A stretch of DNA of 40,208 bases from Pseudomonadota bacterium (GTDB lineage: Bacteria; Pseudomonadota; Alphaproteobacteria; SP197). The stretch is taken from NCBI GenBank assembly GCA_039028155.1, contig JBCCIS010000048.1, forward strand, positions 1-40,208. The letters are read 5' to 3'. A model generated the notes under the pieces. That model was not told where the DNA came from. It saw only the letters and a list, made by a program, of their open reading frames with translations, and made no database searches. Of this stretch, positions 32,937 through 40,208 are shown one piece after another. The translations under genes and the position numbers were made by a program. Numbering within the stretch: position 1 is the first letter of the stretch; the number at the start of each line of letters is the position of its first letter.

Positions 32937-33408
32937 GGACGGTGAACTGATCGACGACCCTTGGCTCCGGGTGGCCGACGATCAGGACCTGCCCGATGGT
33001 CCCGTGATCGTCTCGCTCGAACGCTGGCAGGCGGCCGGCGATGACGTGGCGGCGCACAACGGCCCGCTCGGTGTTGTGCTGGCGAGCGATCAGTCGCCGG
33101 ATCTGATCGGTGATGACCTCGGTCGCTTCGATCTCGTCGCGCTGGACTTTCCGGCGTTCACGGACGGGCGCGCCTATTCCTATGCGCGTCTGCTGCGCGA
33201 GCGCTTGGGCTTCAAGGGTGAAGTCCGCGCCGTCGGCAACGTGTTGCGTGACCAGGTCGCGTTCATGGTGCGCTGTGGTTTCGATGCCTTCGACATGGCC
33301 GACGTCAATGCGGCCGAGGCGTTCAGGCAGGCTCTCGCGGAGGTCTCCGTCACCTACCAGCCGGCTGGCGACGCGCGCCGTCCCGCCATGGCGCTGCGTC
33401 AGAGCTAG
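32923..33408 (+). CDS. DUF934 protein (sulfite reductase-associated)
   Basis: The 161-residue protein matches DUF934: PLIKDGELIDDPWLRVADDQDLPDGPVIVSLERW at the N-terminus, GVVLASDQSPDLIGDDLGRFDLVALDFPAFTDGRAYSYARLLRERLGFKGEVRAVGNVLRDQVAFMVRCGFDAFDM in the middle. Genes of this family follow cysI in many proteobacteria, and a role in sulfite reduction is presumed. It is the last gene of the operon; the PAPS reductase CysH that often accompanies it is not present downstream. The convergent RNase T2 gene ends 26 bases later. Confidence 0.9.
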   Translation: MPLIKDGELIDDPWLRVADDQDLPDGPVIVSLERWQAAGDDVAAHNGPLGVVLASDQSPDLIGDDLGRFDLVALDFPAFTDGRAYSYARLLRERLGFKGEVRAVGNVLRDQVAFMVRCGFDAFDMADVNAAEAFRQALAEVSVTYQPAGDARRPAMALRQS

Positions 33409-33434
33409 ATGATATCGCCGTTTGGCGTCTGTCT

Positions 33435-34295
33435 CTAAGGCGACGGAGCCGCAGGAAGCAGAACGTCAGCGGGGCAACGTGAGTGCTCGGGAACCTCGTC
33501 GGCCGGGCAGTCGACGGGATCAAAGCTGCCGGGCTTCAGACACAGCCACAAGCCGTTCAGATTAGTGCTGTTCTTGTCCTTGTCGTACGTACAACTGAGC
33601 GCCGGTGTTGCACCATAAGCTTGGCTGACTGCGTTGCTGACCGACGACGCGGTGATTGTGGCTGTGCTATCGGGAACGATGCCTGCCGCGTCGAGTACCT
33701 TGCCGATGTCATACCTGTCGTAGAGGCTGAGTGCTTGCGCGAAGTAGTCATGCTGGGAGCCAATGTTGGTGTCGCAGACCGTCGCGCAGATGCCGTGTTT
33801 TTCCCACTCGTAACGCCAGAAGGAGTAGTCGTTGTCGACAGCGCTCTTGGCGTCGGCACTGGTTGATCGAGCAACCCCAAGGTTCGGCCAGGCAGCGGTC
33901 AGCTGAGGAAGCAGTCCGGCGAGCGCGTCGCGTGAAAAGTCTGCGCCTTTGCAGTGCCGTGGGTAACCGCCAGGAGTCAGGCTGCTGGGCCACAAACCGT
34001 GAATGCTCCAGGCATTGTCAGGTTTTGCCTCAAGGCACGTGTCTTGTGCATCGGATTTTAGCGTTAAGCACTGCGATTCAGGCCAGGTCTGCGCAAGAAT
34101 GTAGACATCGAAGCTCCCACATTGCGATGCCGCTGCCACCCTCTCGCTCATCAAGGCCGTGACTGCGATCGCTAAGGCGGTCACGGCCAGCATGCGGGCA
34201 ACCGGGAGACTTGCGGGCGACAGATGCCAGTTGGTTCGGGTGCCGGGCCGGCCCTGTCGGAAAGTTCCAAAAACGTTCAATACTCTCTTTGTCAT
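33435..34295 (-). CDS. Secreted ribonuclease T2
   Basis: RNase T2 enzymes cleave single-stranded RNA via 2',3'-cyclic phosphates outside the cytoplasm. The 286-residue protein has both catalytic segments: CAS I in WSIHGLWPSS (about H99) and CAS II in FWRYEWEKHGIC (about E163, H167). CAS II normally reads FWxHEWxKHG, so a His to Tyr change is present at position 162. Several Cys pairs (C59, C76, C87, C115, C170 and others) fit the disulfide pattern. The signal sequence is the hydrophobic stretch MLAVTALAIAVTALMSERVAAA (residues 35-56); the true start may be that internal ATG at 34193. It is divergent from the RT-associated membrane gene. Confidence 0.88.
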   Translation of the reverse strand: MTKRVLNVFGTFRQGRPGTRTNWHLSPASLPVARMLAVTALAIAVTALMSERVAAASQCGSFDVYILAQTWPESQCLTLKSDAQDTCLEAKPDNAWSIHGLWPSSLTPGGYPRHCKGADFSRDALAGLLPQLTAAWPNLGVARSTSADAKSAVDNDYSFWRYEWEKHGICATVCDTNIGSQHDYFAQALSLYDRYDIGKVLDAAGIVPDSTATITASSVSNAVSQAYGATPALSCTYDKDKNSTNLNGLWLCLKPGSFDPVDCPADEVPEHSRCPADVLLPAAPSP

Positions 34296-34363
34296 GCGAT
34301 AGACCAGTCTTTGGCCGTGTTTGCCAGATTGCGATAGACTAACCTGAAACAGTGGGGTTCTCG

Positions 34364-34382
34364 AAGCGCGACGATCGCGCTT
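34364..34382. promoter_or_regulatory. Perfect inverted repeat upstream of the RT operon
   Basis: AAGCGCGA and TCGCGCTT (34364-34371, 34375-34382) form a perfect eight-base dyad with spacer CGA, 66 bases before the membrane-protein ATG and within the divergent gap to RNase T2. It could be an operator or a leader hairpin. The same gap contains GCGATAGAC twice (34296-34304 and 34331-34339), spaced by 35 bases. Confidence 0.4.
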
Positions 34383-34448
34383 AGCGTCGTGGGAGGCACG
34401 TGGTCTTTGTCTGACCTGCAGCGTTCATGACTGGGAGTAGGTCAGTCA

Positions 34449-36536
34449 ATGCAGAGGATTGAGCGTTGGTTCGCATCGGCGGCCGAAAAACAGGAGCGCA
34501 TGGTAACGCTCTACCCCTGCCTTCTTCGCAATAGACTCCTTCCTTACTTCATCTTCCGTCTTCGCTATCTCTTCACACTGCGCGTCATCTCGTTCGCCGT
34601 TCATGTCGCGGAGTTCTTGGTGCTGCTCTCCTATGCGCCAAAACTAGCGGTGATCATTGTCGTCGTGCTGCGTGCGGGATCGCCGCTGGTCCGCGGGGCG
34701 TGGTGGGGCGCGATGGAAGTATTGCGCGAAAAGCTGCGTGACCTCTCCGGACACAGGCACAAGACGGAGGCCGAACAGGCGATCGCCAACTGGCTTGTTC
34801 TTTCCGTGATCTTGGCGGCACTGGTTATGTTGGCGGGGTTGGCCTGGTTGACCTGGTCGCTGTCGCAAGCGTCCGCCAGCGACCATGTTGTTGACATCTA
34901 CATCGTCTTGATCGTGGCAGAGCTGGCCTTACGCATTCCGGTTCTGACACTGCACTCCGGCATCTATGCGACGCGCCGGGTCTACCGGCCCCTGATCTCC
35001 ATTCTACTGCCGACGCTGTTGCAGGCCGCGATCATTGCCGCCCTTTTTGGGCCCCTGAAAGAAGGCTCTTTGATCGTCGCCATCATTGCTGGCTCGGGTT
35101 TTTCGCTGGTCATCAGCTATATCTACATCAAGAGAATGTACGAGATCGTCGATCTCAGACCGACACTTCAACAAGGCTTACGGCATTTCGGGCGCTTTCT
35201 CGCCGGTTTGCCCGTGGCCACGCTGATGTGGTCGACGGCGGCTGGTTTTCTCATCCGCATCGACAGTCTTCTGGTTCTGATCTTGGTCGGGCTCGAGGAT
35301 ATCGCCGGCAACACGATCGACCTGACTGCCGGTCATCCGGAATGGAACACCCCCGATCTTGCGGTGCTTCTCTATATTATTCTGCCGGCCATCCGCGGAT
35401 CATATGAGTGGTCGATTTTGTTTTACTTCGATCTCGTGCGACTGCGCCGCGCCATCGCGCTGCACAATCTTGCCCATGTCTTCATGGCCAAGCTTGTCTT
35501 CGCCGCAGCGATCGTCGGGCTCTTCTTCTGGCTTCTCGCGGCCATCGTCTTTGTTCTCGGCTTCCAAGACATACCCATCGCATTTCTTGTTGCGATGCTG
35601 CCATTCTTCTTGGTTCGTTCATGGCTTGCGGTGTACCAGGTGAGAGCCTATGCCGACCATCGGTATGCGACGGTTTGCATCAGCATGATCGTCATTCTGG
35701 CTGGCGTTGTTCTCATTGGCACCGGAGAGTTGGCCGACATCGGGAGTTTCGCCGAACTCAAGATCTGCTTTCTGATCTCGCTGATCGTCCTGATCATCGC
35801 CCAACTCTGGTATGACAGGCGGGAGATCAAGCTCGCTCCGCTTCTGTCACTTGGAGACTGGTGCAAAAGGCTGACACACGAACCCGGCGAGGTCACCGCC
35901 GGCACCCTGGAGATCGCGAGGTCGGCGAGCGATCGCGACAGACTGAAGCTTCGGGATATGCTGACGGAAAGCCTGGAAGATAGTGGGCATGGCGCTTGGC
36001 GTGATAAGCACTGTCTCGTTTACTTCTATCGTCACGGCGCCGAGGCTTCCAACCGGTTTGATCCCCGCACGTTGCTCGACGAGGCCGCTGGTCTTGTGAA
36101 CCGCCTGCGGTCGACAGGCGAGATACCGGTCAAGGGAAGGCGCGCTCTCGCCATCATGCGTGAACGTGGCCTTTTGCCATCCGAACCGGATGCCAGACTT
36201 GATACATCGGGCCTGGTGGCGGCGTTTCAGGAGATGTTTGAGAGTAAAGGTGGTCTCATGATCGACTTGTCATCGCCCTCGCGGGCCAAGCTCTCCGCTG
36301 ATTTGGACAGGGAAACCACGTCATCGGCCATTCCGACGGCAGTGCGCGCGTTGGGTTCGGGAGCGACCTCGTCGCTGTGCGGATCCTATCGTCTGTACCC
36401 CGCCTTTCTTGATCAAAAGCTTCACGCCTTGTTCTTCGTGCCCGGCGACACCAAACCGGACGTCCTCAACTCATGGAAAGAGAGGATGAACGACTGGTCG
36501 TTGTCTCAATCAAAGAGAGATGCCAGGGATTCGTAG
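34449..36536 (+). CDS. Polytopic membrane protein of the reverse transcriptase operon
   Basis: I do not recognise this 695-residue protein as a named family. Residues about 40-455 hold some 11 or 12 hydrophobic membrane segments, for example 44-62, 112-137, 148-168, 181-202, 207-227, 252-282, 345-372, 375-395, 408-425 and 436-455. This topology recalls the MOP/Wzx-type flippases, but I see no diagnostic motif. Residues about 456-695 form a soluble, charged C-terminal domain of about 240 residues (AGTLEIARSASDRDRLKLRDMLTESLED, HCLVYFYRHGAEASNRFDPRTLLDEAAGLV). The RT gene starts two bases after its stop, so the two products are probably made together. Base composition looks less GC-rich than in flanking genes, consistent with acquired DNA. 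Confidence 0.85.
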   Translation: MQRIERWFASAAEKQERMVTLYPCLLRNRLLPYFIFRLRYLFTLRVISFAVHVAEFLVLLSYAPKLAVIIVVVLRAGSPLVRGAWWGAMEVLREKLRDLSGHRHKTEAEQAIANWLVLSVILAALVMLAGLAWLTWSLSQASASDHVVDIYIVLIVAELALRIPVLTLHSGIYATRRVYRPLISILLPTLLQAAIIAALFGPLKEGSLIVAIIAGSGFSLVISYIYIKRMYEIVDLRPTLQQGLRHFGRFLAGLPVATLMWSTAAGFLIRIDSLLVLILVGLEDIAGNTIDLTAGHPEWNTPDLAVLLYIILPAIRGSYEWSILFYFDLVRLRRAIALHNLAHVFMAKLVFAAAIVGLFFWLLAAIVFVLGFQDIPIAFLVAMLPFFLVRSWLAVYQVRAYADHRYATVCISMIVILAGVVLIGTGELADIGSFAELKICFLISLIVLIIAQLWYDRREIKLAPLLSLGDWCKRLTHEPGEVTAGTLEIARSASDRDRLKLRDMLTESLEDSGHGAWRDKHCLVYFYRHGAEASNRFDPRTLLDEAAGLVNRLRSTGEIPVKGRRALAIMRERGLLPSEPDARLDTSGLVAAFQEMFESKGGLMIDLSSPSRAKLSADLDRETTSSAIPTAVRALGSGATSSLCGSYRLYPAFLDQKLHALFFVPGDTKPDVLNSWKERMNDWSLSQSKRDARDS

Positions 36537-36538
36537 AG

Positions 36539-37873
36539 ATGGACAAGCGAGCACTCAATCTCGACGACATCATCGGCGACCCGGACTTTTACGCTGACGC
36601 CATCAAGAAGATCTTCAACAAGAAGAACGAACGCAATCAGGCCTTCATGGAAGCGCAGGACGGGGTCAGCTACATCGGAACCTTTATCCTTCATCGTGGT
36701 TTGTCGCGCGCGCTCGCTAAGACGGTCAGCAAAGGCGAATACCGCTTCTCTCCGGTCAATCTCTGGTCTCTAAGACTCGGCAACAAAACGCGTCAAGCTC
36801 ATCGGTCCAAGTTCACCGACCAGATTGTCGGGTCGGTCGTCTATCGCGTCGTCTCGAACAACGCACAAGTGATGGGCATGCCGGGCCTCTACTCCTATCT
36901 GCCAGGTACCAGCAACTACGCGGCCATGAGGGACTTTGCCCGTTACGTCCGCGACCATCGGCGTGACAGGAAGGACCCACGCCAGCGTGGCTTGTTCGTC
37001 CTGCAGTCGGACTTTGAGAAGTACGGCGATAACCTTCCGGTTCATCCCGACGCCTACATCTGGACTGTACTGCGCGATGTTCTGGGCATTGACGGCAACG
37101 ACGACATATCTGACACCGCGTGGAGTCTGGTCGAGGATCTTGTCCGACCGACCGTTCGCGATAGCGATGGTTTCGACTTCACGCGTCTTTACGGTATTCC
37201 GATGGGCGTGCCGATTGTCCCAATCGTCAACAATCTGGCGGCATCGCCGCTCGACGAGCTCTTCTCGCAATGGGACGGCGCCTTCTATGCAAGGTTCAAC
37301 GACGATTTTCTCTTTGCGCATCCGGATCGATCGGTCTTGTCGGAGGCTGACGAAAAGGTCGAAGAGCTGCTGGAACCTTTGGGTGTTCGTCGCAACAGGA
37401 AAAAGAACATCTTGAGCTACTTCAATGGCGCGGGCCGACAGTGCCTCACAGACCCTCAGTTCCGTGGATGTAGCCGTATCGACTTTCTTGGTCTTTCCGT
37501 CTCGTTTGACGGCACGATAGGACCGGGTCCCAAGCGCATTGCGCGGCTCATGACAGAGGTTTGCAAGCGCCTCGATCGAACGGGTCGCGTCCTGGACGGA
37601 TTGCCGCTGGACGATCGAACACGTCACCTGGTGAATGTGACCAACAATATGCTGGCGCCGGATCATGTGTTGTCCGTGCTCAGCGTAAAGGGCATCTTGC
37701 GCGACACGACAGATCGCAATTGCCTGCGGCAAATTGACCACCGCATCGCGATGAAGCTTGTGCAGGTCGCCACGGGCCGAACTGGTGCAAGGGGGTTCAG
37801 ACAATTGCCCACCCGAATGCTGCGGCAGCGGTACGGATTGACGTCCCTCGTCCAGCGGCGAAACGCCATGTAA
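36539..37873 (+). CDS. Divergent reverse transcriptase (unassigned group)
   Basis: This 444-residue protein is a reverse transcriptase by its ordered motifs. NLWSLRLGNKTRQAHRSKFTDQIVGSVVYRVV (about residues 74-105) matches motifs 0-2. LYSYLPGTSNYAAMRDFARYVRD leads to motif A, FVLQSDFEKYGDNLPV (Asp 158). Motif B is GIPMGVPIVPIVNNLAASPLDELF (219-242). The catalytic motif C is ARFNDDFLFAHP (D255, D256), with Phe-Asn in place of the usual Tyr-x. LLEPLGVRRNRKKN is motif D and RIDFLGLSVSFDGTIGPGPKRI is motif E. A C-terminal helical thumb follows. There is no HNH or maturase domain. The frame extends to an ATG at 36473 overlapping the membrane gene; 36539 is preferred because it follows TAG by two bases. 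Confidence 0.9.
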   Translation: MDKRALNLDDIIGDPDFYADAIKKIFNKKNERNQAFMEAQDGVSYIGTFILHRGLSRALAKTVSKGEYRFSPVNLWSLRLGNKTRQAHRSKFTDQIVGSVVYRVVSNNAQVMGMPGLYSYLPGTSNYAAMRDFARYVRDHRRDRKDPRQRGLFVLQSDFEKYGDNLPVHPDAYIWTVLRDVLGIDGNDDISDTAWSLVEDLVRPTVRDSDGFDFTRLYGIPMGVPIVPIVNNLAASPLDELFSQWDGAFYARFNDDFLFAHPDRSVLSEADEKVEELLEPLGVRRNRKKNILSYFNGAGRQCLTDPQFRGCSRIDFLGLSVSFDGTIGPGPKRIARLMTEVCKRLDRTGRVLDGLPLDDRTRHLVNVTNNMLAPDHVLSVLSVKGILRDTTDRNCLRQIDHRIAMKLVQVATGRTGARGFRQLPTRMLRQRYGLTSLVQRRNAM

Positions 37874-38169
37874 CGTCATGTCCTGCGTTCGACCGTTCCC
37901 GTATGGCACGCGAATGGTGGAAGGTACTGGCCCTAACCAGATCAGCCTTTGCACATGGACATGATCTGTTGGGCAGCATTGGTTCTCTCGTCTTCGGACG
38001 CAGAACAGTCTGGCGCAATGCTGGGTTGGTGCGGTCACAGCACGGCTGGTGCGATCCGTCAATCAGGCACGCCGTTTCAGTCGTTGAGAGGCTTTGAACA
38101 CAGCGACCAGGCGGCGCCGTCGGCGCTCACCTTGCTTCACAGAAAGACCGACCTCGTGATAATGATCAA

Positions 38170-38276
38170 GGGGAAAGGGTGCAGACCCTGCTTTACCAGC
38201 AGTTCGGACCTCGTTGTTCAAAGGGGCTGCGGCCCTCGAAGAACGATTTTCTTTTTACTACCTGCACCCTTTCTCC
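38170..38276. repeat. Long-range inverted repeat (15-base arms)
   Basis: The arms are GGGGAAAGGGTGCAG (38170-38184) and CTGCACCCTTTCTCC (38262-38276). They are complementary over 15 bases with one G-T pair, across a 77-base interior that contains two further hairpins. The right arm lies after the T-tract, so the full stem forms only in read-through RNA or at the DNA level. Confidence 0.7.
38211..38256 (+). terminator. Rho-independent terminator-like hairpin of the RT operon
   Basis: TCGTTGTTC (38211-38219) pairs with GAAGAACGA (38238-38246) with one mismatch, enclosing an inner GGGC-TGCG-GCCC stem (38224-38235). It is followed at once by TTTTCTTTTT (38247-38256). This is the most convincing intrinsic terminator in the window. 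It would end the membrane-protein/RT transcript about 340-380 bases past the RT stop, leaving a long structured 3' region. Confidence 0.6.
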
Positions 38277-38280
38277 ATCT

Positions 38281-38526
38281 TTCGCGAAGCGTTCCGCACA
38301 AGCTGTCGCGGTATTCAGGCCGCAACGGCAAGCGCCATGATTTCAGACCTGTATTGCTCCGCCATGGTGCCCGGTCAGGATCAGTGACGACGTCCGGGCT
38401 CGGTGCGAAGAAACGCGCCAAACGGCCTGGAAGACGTTTCAATGACTCAGGTTGGAGCTGTGTCGACGCTCACATATCGCTCGCCGCCGAATAGGTTATA
38501 TTAATCATTCCATCGGCTTGGGGATC
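38281..38526. other. Gene-free leader before the glycosyltransferase
   Basis: Completes the 653-base stretch without genes that starts at 37874. Open frames here are short and do not resemble known proteins. The AT-rich part near 38494-38506 (GGTTATATTAATC) could be a -10 region for the glycosyltransferase gene, with its start 20-30 bases later. Confidence 0.35.
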
Positions 38527-39474
38527 ATGGTGGGGCGCGATATGGACCAGACGTCGCCGCGGGTCGCGGTGCTGATACCGTGCTACAACGAAGAGGTTGC
38601 CATTGGCAGCGTGGTCGACGACTTCCGCGCCGCGTTGCCGGATGCGGCGATCTATGTCTACGACAACAACTCAACGGACCGCACTGTTGACATCGCGCGA
38701 GAGCATGGCGCGGTCGTCCGTTCAGAAACCCGTCAGGGCAAGGGCCATGTCGTCCGGCGCATGTTCTCTGATGTTGAGGCGGACATCTATGTGCTGGTCG
38801 ACGGTGACGCGACCTATGATGCCGCGAGCGCGCCGGAACTCGTCGCGAAACTTCTAGGCGACGGCCTCGACATGGTGTCGGCGTCCAGACGCCAAGTCTC
38901 CGAGGAGGCCTACCGGCGCGGCCACGTCTTCGGCAACAGGATTCTCACCGGCCTCGTCGCTCTGCTGTTCGGCGCGCGCCTTAAGGACATGCTCTCGGGA
39001 TATCGCGTTTTCTCACGCCGCTTCGTAAAGAGTTTCCCCGCCCTTGCGCGCGGTTTCGAAATCGAGACCGAGCTGACGGTACACGCGTTGTCGCTACGCA
39101 TGCCGATGGCGGAAGTCGAGACGCCCTACCGCGAACGCCAGGAAGGTTCTGACAGTAAGCTCAATACGTGGCGCGACGGTTTCCGCATTCTCATGACGAT
39201 CTTCCAGTTGGTGAAGGAAGAGCGTCCTTTGCCGTTCTTCCTGTTGACCGGCCTTGCCCTGGTCGTGCTCTCACTGATCATCGGCTCGCCGGTTGTCGCT
39301 GAATTCTTGAGATCCGGAACCGTTCCCAAACTGCCCAGTGCCATTCTTGCTACGGGCTTGATGTTGCTGGGTTTTTTGGGTTTCACCTGCGGCATGATTT
39401 TGGACACGGTGACCCATGGGCGGTTGGAGATTAAGCGTCTTGCCTATCTGCGGTACCCCGGGCCGCAGAATTGA
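38527..39474 (+). CDS. GT2 glycosyltransferase (polyprenyl-phosphate sugar synthase-like)
   Basis: The product (315 residues) is a GT-A family 2 enzyme: VAVLIPCYNEEVAIGSVVDDFRAALPDAAIYVYDNNSTDRT at the N-terminus, metal-binding DxD in VLVDGDATYDA, then FGNRILTGLVALLFGARLKDMLSGYRVFSRRFVKSFP, similar to dolichol-phosphate mannose/undecaprenyl-phosphate glycosyltransferases. The C-terminus has two membrane helices (about 237-260 and 273-297), as in GtrB-like proteins. ATG at 38527 is used; ATG at 38542 (MDQTSPRVAV) is an alternative, and the frame extends further upstream without a ribosome site. The downstream GtrA-like gene overlaps its stop, so the pair likely makes and flips a lipid-linked sugar. 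Confidence 0.9.
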   Translation: MVGRDMDQTSPRVAVLIPCYNEEVAIGSVVDDFRAALPDAAIYVYDNNSTDRTVDIAREHGAVVRSETRQGKGHVVRRMFSDVEADIYVLVDGDATYDAASAPELVAKLLGDGLDMVSASRRQVSEEAYRRGHVFGNRILTGLVALLFGARLKDMLSGYRVFSRRFVKSFPALARGFEIETELTVHALSLRMPMAEVETPYRERQEGSDSKLNTWRDGFRILMTIFQLVKEERPLPFFLLTGLALVVLSLIIGSPVVAEFLRSGTVPKLPSAILATGLMLLGFLGFTCGMILDTVTHGRLEIKRLAYLRYPGPQN

Positions 39475-39887
39475 CTGATCGCTCGATGCCGACCGCCGCT
39501 CTGTCCGGCCAGTTCCTGCGCTTTTGCCTGGTCGGCGGCATCGGGTTTGTCGTCGACGCCGGCAGTTTGTGGTTGCTGATCGACTATGGCGGCATGGGTT
39601 TGCTGAGCGGGCGCGTCGTCTCCTATCTGATCGCCGCGACGGTGACGTGGGCGTTGCATCGGCACTTTACGTTTCCTCATGGGCGCAACAGCCCAAAGGG
39701 ACGTCAGTGGGTCCGCTTTGTCGTGGTGAACGCTGTCGGCGCCGGTATCAACTATGGCGTCTATGCCTTGCTTGTCCTGAACATCGCTGCCTTTGCGCAG
39801 TGGCCGGTGCTGGCGGTCGCTGCGGGGTCGGTCGTGGCGCTTGCGTTTAACTTCCTGGCCTCGCGGCATTTCGTGTTTCGTGTCTGA
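39471..39887 (+). CDS. GtrA-like membrane protein
   Basis: The 138-residue protein has four membrane helices and the GtrA-family pattern: FLRFCLVGGIGFVVDAGSLWLLI, VSYLIAATVTWALHRHFTFPHG, RQWVRFVVVNAVGAGINYGVYALLV, and VAAGSVVALAFNFLASRHFVFR at the C-terminus. GtrA proteins are proposed flippases for polyprenyl-phosphate sugars, consistent with its position after a GtrB-like GT2. The frame starts at a TTG overlapping the previous stop (TTGA, 39471-39474), with an ATG at 39486 as an alternative; overlap with coupling favours the TTG, but neither start is certain. Confidence 0.9.
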   Translation: MTDRSMPTAALSGQFLRFCLVGGIGFVVDAGSLWLLIDYGGMGLLSGRVVSYLIAATVTWALHRHFTFPHGRNSPKGRQWVRFVVVNAVGAGINYGVYALLVLNIAAFAQWPVLAVAAGSVVALAFNFLASRHFVFRV

Positions 39888-40208
39888 TCGGCTGACCATC
39901 ACCGTGGCAGGCCTTCTGCCGTTGGTCTTCTTCGGCGTCTTGCTGGCTTTTGGTGGGCTTCAGGTGCTGGACGGTGTGCTGGCGGACTCCGATTGTTATG
40001 TCCGCTTGATGCGGATCACGCGGCTGGTCGAGACCGGTGCCTGGTACGATGGCTTTGAGCCGCTGTTGAACGCGCCCGATGGCCTGGTCATGCATTGGAC
40101 CCGGCCTTTCGACGTCTTGATGCTGGCGGGCACGTTGCCCGGCATGCTGGTCACCGACTTCCAGACATCGCTGTTTTGGTGGGGCGTGGTGATCAGTCCG
40201 GTGTTCGC
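39880..40208 (+). CDS. GT-C-like membrane protein, N-terminal part
   Basis: The window ends inside this gene; 109 codons are present. It seems to start at a GTG overlapping the GtrA stop. After a first membrane helix (about residues 6-30, ITVAGLLPLVFFGVLLAFGGL), it reads DGVLADSDCYVRLMRITRLVETGAWYDGFEPLLNAPDGLVMHWTRPFDVLMLAGTLP. This DxD-containing first loop with the WYD...NAPDG...HWTRPFD pattern resembles the acceptor/metal loop of STT3/PMT-like GT-C glycosyltransferases. It is probably the enzyme that uses the lipid-linked sugar made by the two upstream genes. Confidence 0.7.
   Translation, partial: MSDRLTITVAGLLPLVFFGVLLAFGGLQVLDGVLADSDCYVRLMRITRLVETGAWYDGFEPLLNAPDGLVMHWTRPFDVLMLAGTLPGMLVTDFQTSLFWWGVVISPVF

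What the first reader, a model, noticed from the sequence alone, without database searches (positions are those of the whole stretch)
34449..37873. Operon of a divergent reverse transcriptase and a polytopic membrane protein
A clear RT gene, with all core motifs in order, follows a 695-residue membrane protein by two bases and is not in any mobile-element context I can see: no intron RNA, HNH, integrase or DGR repeats. Bacterial RTs outside introns, retrons and DGRs are mostly defence-type (UG/Abi/DRT groups). Pairing with a protein of about 12 membrane segments plus a soluble C-terminal domain suggests a sensor-effector or membrane-acting arrangement. Defence function is inferred from the RT class in general, not shown by the sequence. 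I cannot tell whether it falls in a catalogued UG clade.
Basis: partly seen in the sequence, partly recalled or inferred. Interest (0 to 1): 0.88.

Follow-up and report, generated by a model that had tools for sequence, protein, structure and literature searches.

The report
Reverse transcriptase cassette with exported RNase
A rare 5-kb genetic cassette, shared between distantly related bacteria, combines a reverse transcriptase, its own structured RNA, a transporter-like membrane protein and an RNA-cutting enzyme predicted to be exported; it looks like a new kind of reverse-transcriptase immune system, although its function has not been tested.

Summary
In detail: a reverse transcriptase (RT; ATG at 36539, stop ending at 37873) starts two bases after a 695-residue membrane protein gene. 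That is half of the unit. A model built from mycobacterial-family RNAs alone finds both other copies. In 401 genomes of that family RNase T2 occurs in five, the same five as this RT. A genus mate has a 60-bp site where the window has 5.04 kb holding just these four parts. The RT forms its own clade, far below the curated cut-offs or member scores of DRT/UG, retron and group II models. Best reading: a mobile, ncRNA-dependent RT immunity system resembling DRT10, with a new effector arm. Linkage, RNA and absence in the genus mate are shown; templating, defence and effector action are inferred. Library searches found no paper naming RNase T2 together with phage-defence RTs.

The parts
33409..38448 (.). 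Segment of 5.04 kb absent from genus mate G385, where 60 bp lie between the same two flanks; taken as an inserted cassette
   Evidence: G+C 57.5% against 63.8% for the rest of the contig
33435..34295 (-). RNase T2 with N-terminal hydrophobic (signal-like) segment and both catalytic motifs (HGLWP, EWEKHGIC)
   Evidence: PF00445 157.2 bits, cut-off 26; motifs and hydrophobic segment in 16 of 16 T2 genes of 15 loci
34449..36536 (+). Membrane protein, 695 aa: MOP-superfamily-like fold (residues ~16-463) and C-terminal alpha/beta soluble domain (~464-695)
   Evidence: AF2 mean pLDDT 80.1; WzxE/MATE/MurJ Z up to 22.8, Foldseek best 1.4e-4 to a MOP transporter; no Pfam match for the window protein
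36539..37873 (+). Reverse transcriptase, 444 aa, [YF]NDD active site
38170..38276 (+). Structured non-coding RNA: three-way junction, P1 38170-38184/38262-38276, P2 38188-38192/38198-38202, P3 38212-38245 with conserved tip CAAAGGGGCTGCGGCCCTC
   Evidence: fold z -5.17; covariation in 13 of 24 pairs of 15 sequences; found by a model without alphaproteobacterial rows, E 2.7e-9; one match in the genome
38246..38261 (+). U-rich joint between P3 and P1: candidate template (AUUUUCUUUUUACUAC)
   Evidence: sequence and position; repeat test only suggestive; templating is inference

Best explanation
A horizontally mobile four-part RT system, most likely anti-phage. Shown: the RNase T2, MOP-like membrane protein, RT and a covarying three-way-junction RNA occur together across two phyla. 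Inferred: the RT binds the RNA and copies the U-rich joint next to hairpin P3 into short repetitive cDNA, as DRT9 and DRT10 copy theirs; infection changes this complex or its product; the signal reaches the C-terminal soluble domain (presumably cytosolic) of the membrane protein, whose gene is coupled to that of the RT; the membrane protein then changes the envelope (a flux, flipping or leak), and the RNase T2 kept outside the cytoplasm is the killing or clearing arm, reaching RNA when the membrane is opened. The last two steps are the least certain.
For: 15 of 15 loci have T2, membrane gene, RT and RNA. Membrane and RT genes overlap by 11 nt in 10 of the 11 loci L011-L021, by 17 in L015, suggesting translational coupling. 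T2 and RT each occur in 5 of 401 genomes, the same five, Fisher p 1.2e-11 without correction for relatedness. The module's T2 is the only one in 12 of 13 genomes and in the two further genomes G519 and G674. RNA: 96.4% of cells paired, 13 of 24 pairs with double changes, 0 of 500 shuffles as high on either measure; a model without alphaproteobacterial rows finds L010 and the window at 2.3e-10 and 2.7e-9 and nothing else at E up to 1 in 101 kb. Mobility: site without the cassette, lower G+C, few shared flanks, patchy occurrence. RT fold near group II, DGR, G2L4 and DRT9 RTs. One locus abuts a Wadjet JetC gene and one is followed by a GmrSD-domain gene. Precedent: DRT10 needs RT, membrane protein and ncRNA (PMC12632851, passages).
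Against: No functional data. Of 90 flank ORFs scanned, few match defence models and many match ordinary metabolism (lists capped at 25 families); no enrichment was computed. The A-B-A' repeat of a DRT10-type template is not firm: shuffle p 0.025 to 0.71 over nine distinct segments, two of them under 0.05, and L015 has only UUU. In L010 the RNA lies between two T2 genes, not after the RT. No family member in phage, plasmid or viral-contig scans. MOP proteins usually move small molecules or lipid-linked sugars, not proteins or nucleic acids (recalled).
Confidence: 0.5

Rival explanations
1. Envelope/nutrient system: the exported RNase T2 cuts environmental RNA, the MOP-like protein moves the products, and the RT uses or senses them; not immunity.
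For: T2 is predicted outside the cytoplasm in 15 of 15 loci (hydropathy); the MOP fold is a transporter fold.
Against: Needs no RT or structured RNA, yet the four parts occur together in 15 of 15 loci; patchy distribution and unlike flanks do not suggest housekeeping metabolism.
Confidence: 0.12
2. Toxin-antitoxin or interbacterial conflict cassette: T2 is a toxin, the membrane protein its immunity or release factor, and the RT-RNA part controls it, like a tripartite retron toxin-antitoxin.
For: Catalytic motifs of the RNase conserved in 16 of 16 genes; divergent arrangement; retrons as tripartite toxin/antitoxins are in print (title in a reference list).
Against: T2 seems to carry its own export signal; the RT is not retron-like by models.
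Confidence: 0.15
3. Domesticated group II-like RT in DNA repair (as G2L4), with accidental neighbours.
For: VIA-align Z 24.5 to G2L4 and 25.8 to GsI-IIC; AU test does not reject group II kinship, p 0.199.
Against: Neighbours are not accidental: the same parts in 15 of 15 loci whose flanks mostly differ; G2L4 has no such partners (recalled).
Confidence: 0.06
4. The RNA is a transcription terminator or cis-regulator of the operon rather than a template or RT cofactor.
For: P3 is followed by a U tract, as in an intrinsic terminator, and in 14 of 15 loci it follows the RT gene.
Against: The P3 tip and the long-range stem P1, which closes after the U tract, are conserved across phyla; in L010 it lies between the T2 genes, away from the RT end.
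Confidence: 0.15

Closest known systems
DRT10 (UG17 RT + SLATT membrane protein + ncRNA)
   Same: RT beside a membrane protein and a structured RNA whose candidate template follows a stem-loop (PMC12632851 passages)
   Different: Membrane partner is a large MOP-fold protein, not SLATT; RNase T2 added; UG17 model scores only 25.7 bits; RNA downstream of the RT in 14 of 15 loci; A-B-A' pattern not established
DRT9 (UG28, number recalled)
   Same: Best specific PADLOC hit of the window RT, 43.5 bits; DRT9 has an ncRNA with a poly-U template (passage); fold Z 22.5
   Different: A reference Drt9 scores 582.6 bits; DRT9 is described as two-component, RT and ncRNA (abstract start)
Group II intron RT and G2L4
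   Same: Closest folds; the five plasmid hits at E up to 1e-5 are about 25% identical, four of them annotated as group II RTs
   Different: No group II RNA found by Rfam; TIGR04416 33.3 bits against cut-off 300; active site NDD instead of the usual ADD of group II RTs (recalled)
Retrons
   Same: RT, RNA with paired ends, accessory proteins (retron side recalled)
   Different: Retron models far below cut-off; the RNA has no Rfam match; T2 and MOP proteins are not retron effectors that I know of (recalled)
MOP superfamily (MATE, WzxE, MurJ)
   Same: Fold over residues ~16-463, Z up to 22.8
   Different: None of 13 members matches a Pfam transporter family at E up to 1; extra ~230-residue soluble domain without a convincing PDB sequence match

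Membership tests
Catalogued DRT/UG group (PADLOC 2.0.0 models) | Score to one group model like that of its members | tested here: not met
   Window: best specific 43.5 bits (Drt9), generic RT 50.5; best Drt9 E over 13 members 2e-17. Twelve reference RTs taken here as UG4, Drt2, Drt9 or UG5 scored 170-628 bits with their own model
DRT10 | UG17 RT with SLATT partner | tested here: not met
   UG17 25.7 bits; partner has MOP fold
DRT10 | ncRNA with A-B-A' template just after a stable stem-loop | tested here: inconclusive
   The joint follows P3; repeats such as UUUUUC-GGCG-UUUUUC, UUUA-GGCG-UUUA, UUUUUC-G-UUUUUC are present, but shuffle p is 0.025-0.71 and L015 has only UUU
Group II intron | Intron RNA around the RT and group II RT/maturase model | tested here: not met
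   Rfam: none in 33000-40208; TIGR04416 33.3 of 300 bits
Retron | Retron RT model over cut-off | tested here: not met
   NCBIfam St85 24.4 of 235, Ec67 12.3 of 450
Diversity-generating retroelement | Template/variable repeat pair | not tested
   No dedicated repeat search; fold is similar (Z 24.6)
RNase T2 | Family domain and both catalytic motifs | tested here: met
   157.2 bits, cut-off 26; both motifs in 16 of 16 genes of 15 loci
MOP superfamily | MOP fold | tested here: met
   Foldseek and VIA-align on an AF2 model; model-based only
MOP superfamily | Sequence-profile membership | tested here: not met
   0 of 13 members match a Pfam transporter family at E up to 1
Anti-phage defence system | Lowers phage plating | not testable with these tools
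   needs an experiment

The most novel reading that the evidence does not exclude
A new class of RT immunity in which RNA-templated repetitive cDNA made in the cytoplasm gates an envelope MOP-type protein, which either lets an exported RNase T2 act on cellular or phage RNA, or carries nucleic acid across the membrane: it would be the first RT system known to me whose effector arm spans, and lies outside, the inner membrane.
Probability: 0.27. Interest if true: 0.95.

Novelty: new variant of a known kind. Interest (0 to 1): 0.88.

Why it matters
RT-based immunity is known to use ncRNA templates and varied effectors. This adds an RT clade outside the groups modelled in PADLOC 2.0.0, an RNA without a match in Rfam 15, and two partners (a MOP-fold membrane protein and an RNase T2 predicted outside the cytoplasm) that the library searches made here did not show linked with defence RTs. 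It puts a nuclease outside the cytoplasm into an otherwise cytoplasmic RT pathway, a topological puzzle that a few mutants could settle. The 5-kb, four-part cassette is compact enough to move into laboratory hosts whole.

Tried and rejected
Rfam RT-3 match inside the membrane gene (20.4 bits, gathering 40.5): no RT-3 match at E up to 1 in L010, L011, L045 or L046, treated as chance. ORF 37949-38494 (181 aa): overlaps the RNA; its only tblastn echo, in L010, lies over the L010 RNA, so it is not taken as a gene.

Deep RT placement: the best tree joins the family to UG5 at 92/81 (not starred); AU tests do not reject union with group II (0.199), DRT9 (0.426), UG4 (0.314), retron (0.16) or DRT2 (0.163); the test with DGR-like phage RTs did not finish. 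The tree holds 9 of 15 family members and 28 other RTs. Of the RTs at hand, L070 was dropped (truncated at a record end, motif C at residue 72), L008 and L042 were not used (a stop inside), nor was L063, nor the loci L080 and L081 that came later. No kinship is claimed.

C-terminal domain of the membrane protein: the profile against the PDB gives one chain, an AroA(G) fragment at E 0.023; the single sequence a GNAT at 0.48 and a Fab at 0.84; not believed.

The A-B-A' template idea was tested and is only suggestive. A change of C to A in both copies is seen in L013, L014 and L016, possibly one event; L015 goes against it.

Alignment A6 includes a sixteenth, chance row (L019 12976-13013, E 0.87); the counts quoted are those of A5, whose structure came from the same alignment and in which P2 of the window and L010 is misaligned by one column. 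tblastn with the window T2 found it in 10 of 12 loci; Pfam and motif scans found it in the other two, L013 and L014.

In one search, 13 of 401 genomes passed E 0.001; 8 of these are weak partial matches (23-33 bits) and were not counted as family. In one search, 6 genomes besides the own one had such weak matches, two. One search's 401 genomes are taken to be one search's because request, number and the listed handles agree; full lists were not shown. These searches score only candidates of a first look, so weak members can be missed. The genome-contig scan finds only relatives sharing an exact short peptide.

Flank comparison: at E 1e-20, seven pairs of flanks share DNA: L014/L016 left (1.65 kb), and L017, L018, L020 left with each other and with L011 right (1.1-1.25 kb). 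L020 has no right flank. So the sites are mostly, not wholly, unlike.

Export of T2 rests on a hydropathy scan; no signal-peptide predictor was run. That the window's genome is alphaproteobacterial is inferred from L010 and from its sulfite reductase: the 12 listed plasmid hits (of 105) are from genera that I know as Alphaproteobacteria.
Full report
What is there. The window (all of contig C48 of genome G000) carries an RT gene two bases after a 695-residue membrane protein gene, as reported. Pfam and NCBIfam see only sub-threshold RT matches, PADLOC a generic RT and weak group matches.

Relatives. A scan of a collection of 84,980 species genomes with the RT gave 12 loci: one alphaproteobacterial MAG (65% identity) and 11 mycobacteria (45-47%). 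A profile search of 401 genomes of the family of L011's genome gave five strong matches, two of them new (L045, L046); 394 genomes of its class gave three strong matches, none new. None of 384 other genomes of the window's class gave a strong match. With the window this makes 15 loci. Phage, plasmid and viral-contig searches found no member.

A four-part unit. The membrane gene precedes the RT in 15 of 15; the two genes overlap in L010-L021 and are two bases apart in the window. A divergent RNase T2 gene is present in 15 of 15, with both catalytic motifs and an N-terminal hydrophobic segment in 16 of 16 genes (L010 has two). It is the sole T2 gene in 12 of the 13 genomes (G396 has three) and in G519 and G674. 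In 401 genomes of L011's family, T2 occurs in five, the same five as the RT (Fisher p 1.2e-11; relatedness not corrected for).

A structured RNA. Comparing the stretches after the RT showed a conserved element: outer stem P1, hairpin P2, hairpin P3 with a conserved tip, then a U-rich joint before P1 closes. Over 15 sequences and 24 pairs, 96.4% of cells pair and 13 pairs show double changes; none of 500 shuffles and no slid version is as high on these two measures. I spotted the window copy by eye and the L010 copy by its tip motif, so I tested this with a model built from the other 13 RNAs only: it finds L010 (47.6 bits) and the window (43.7 bits) and nothing else at E up to 1 in 101 kb. G-U pairs favour the + strand. 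The window genome has one match, and 288 other genomes of its class none, with strict filters. Rfam has no match to it in the window, L010, L011, L045 or L046. In L010 it sits between the two T2 genes, which argues against a mere terminator of the RT gene.

Mobility. In genus mate G385 the two flanks of the window (up to 33408 and from 38449) are 60 bp apart. The window thus has 5.04 kb more, holding T2, membrane gene, RT and RNA and no other gene that I recognise, at 57.5% G+C against 63.8%. Loss in G385 is not formally excluded, but none of 95 other relatives searched has the membrane gene. The printed junctions show no obvious target repeats; I did not test for them systematically. Flanks of the other loci mostly share no DNA.

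Proteins. The RT model (pLDDT 84.8) fits group II GsI-IIC (Z 25.8), DGR (24.6), G2L4 (24.5) and DRT9 (22.5) RTs. In a 37-row tree the family is a 100/99 clade on a stem of 1.49 changes per column; its deeper place is unresolved. The membrane protein model (pLDDT 80.1) has a MOP fold: WzxE 22.8, MATE 22.6, MurJ 19.5, followed by an alpha/beta domain without convincing relatives.

How it may work. The closest working model that I saw is DRT10: RT, membrane protein and ncRNA, all required for defence, with a template just after a stem-loop (PMC12632851, a preprint, passages only). Here the U-rich joint after P3 is in the same place. The repeat pattern that DRT10 needs is visible in several copies but is not statistically firm. 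From this I infer RNA-templated cDNA, sensed by the membrane protein's soluble domain, with the exported RNase T2 and the membrane protein as effector arm. One locus abuts a JetC gene of Wadjet and another is followed by a GmrSD-domain gene, but many neighbours are metabolic, so defence rests mainly on analogy.

Literature. RNase T2 with reverse transcriptase and phage defense: 0 papers; with defense-associated reverse transcriptase: 0; with abortive infection: 3, none on this by title or abstract start; a looser five-term search: 526 papers, of which I saw 15 in the listing, none on such a link; reverse transcriptase, MATE, flippase and phage defense: 4, none relevant by title. For myRT (PMC8934634) I saw passages and term counts: no RNase T2, transmembrane or flippase in the main text. 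The library lacks most subscription papers, so the novelty claim is limited to it.

Noticed in passing
L019 1680-5033 (+): JetC (Wadjet condensin-like, 2100 bits) ends within 15 bases of the 3' end of the module's RNase T2 gene.
   Followed up: partly
L017 9641-11788 (+): GmrSD N-terminal domain protein starting about 170 bases after the module's RNA.
   Followed up: partly
L010 3871-4740 and 4979-5809 (-): Two tandem RNase T2 genes with the RNA between them on the opposite strand; a third T2 elsewhere in that genome.
   Followed up: partly
L017, L018, L020 left flanks and L011 right flank: About 1.1-1.25 kb of shared DNA next to the module, on opposite sides in L011 and the others; possibly an insertion hot spot or companion element.
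   Followed up: no
L062 2707-3717, L063 1569-2576, L072 1507-2337: UG4-type RTs on plasmids; in L063 and L072 they follow fimbrial genes.
   Followed up: no
L011 1595-1705 (+): SAM-IV riboswitch, 73 bits.
   Followed up: no
window 35912-36041 (+): Sub-threshold Rfam RT-3 RNA match inside the membrane gene; taken as chance.
   Followed up: yes
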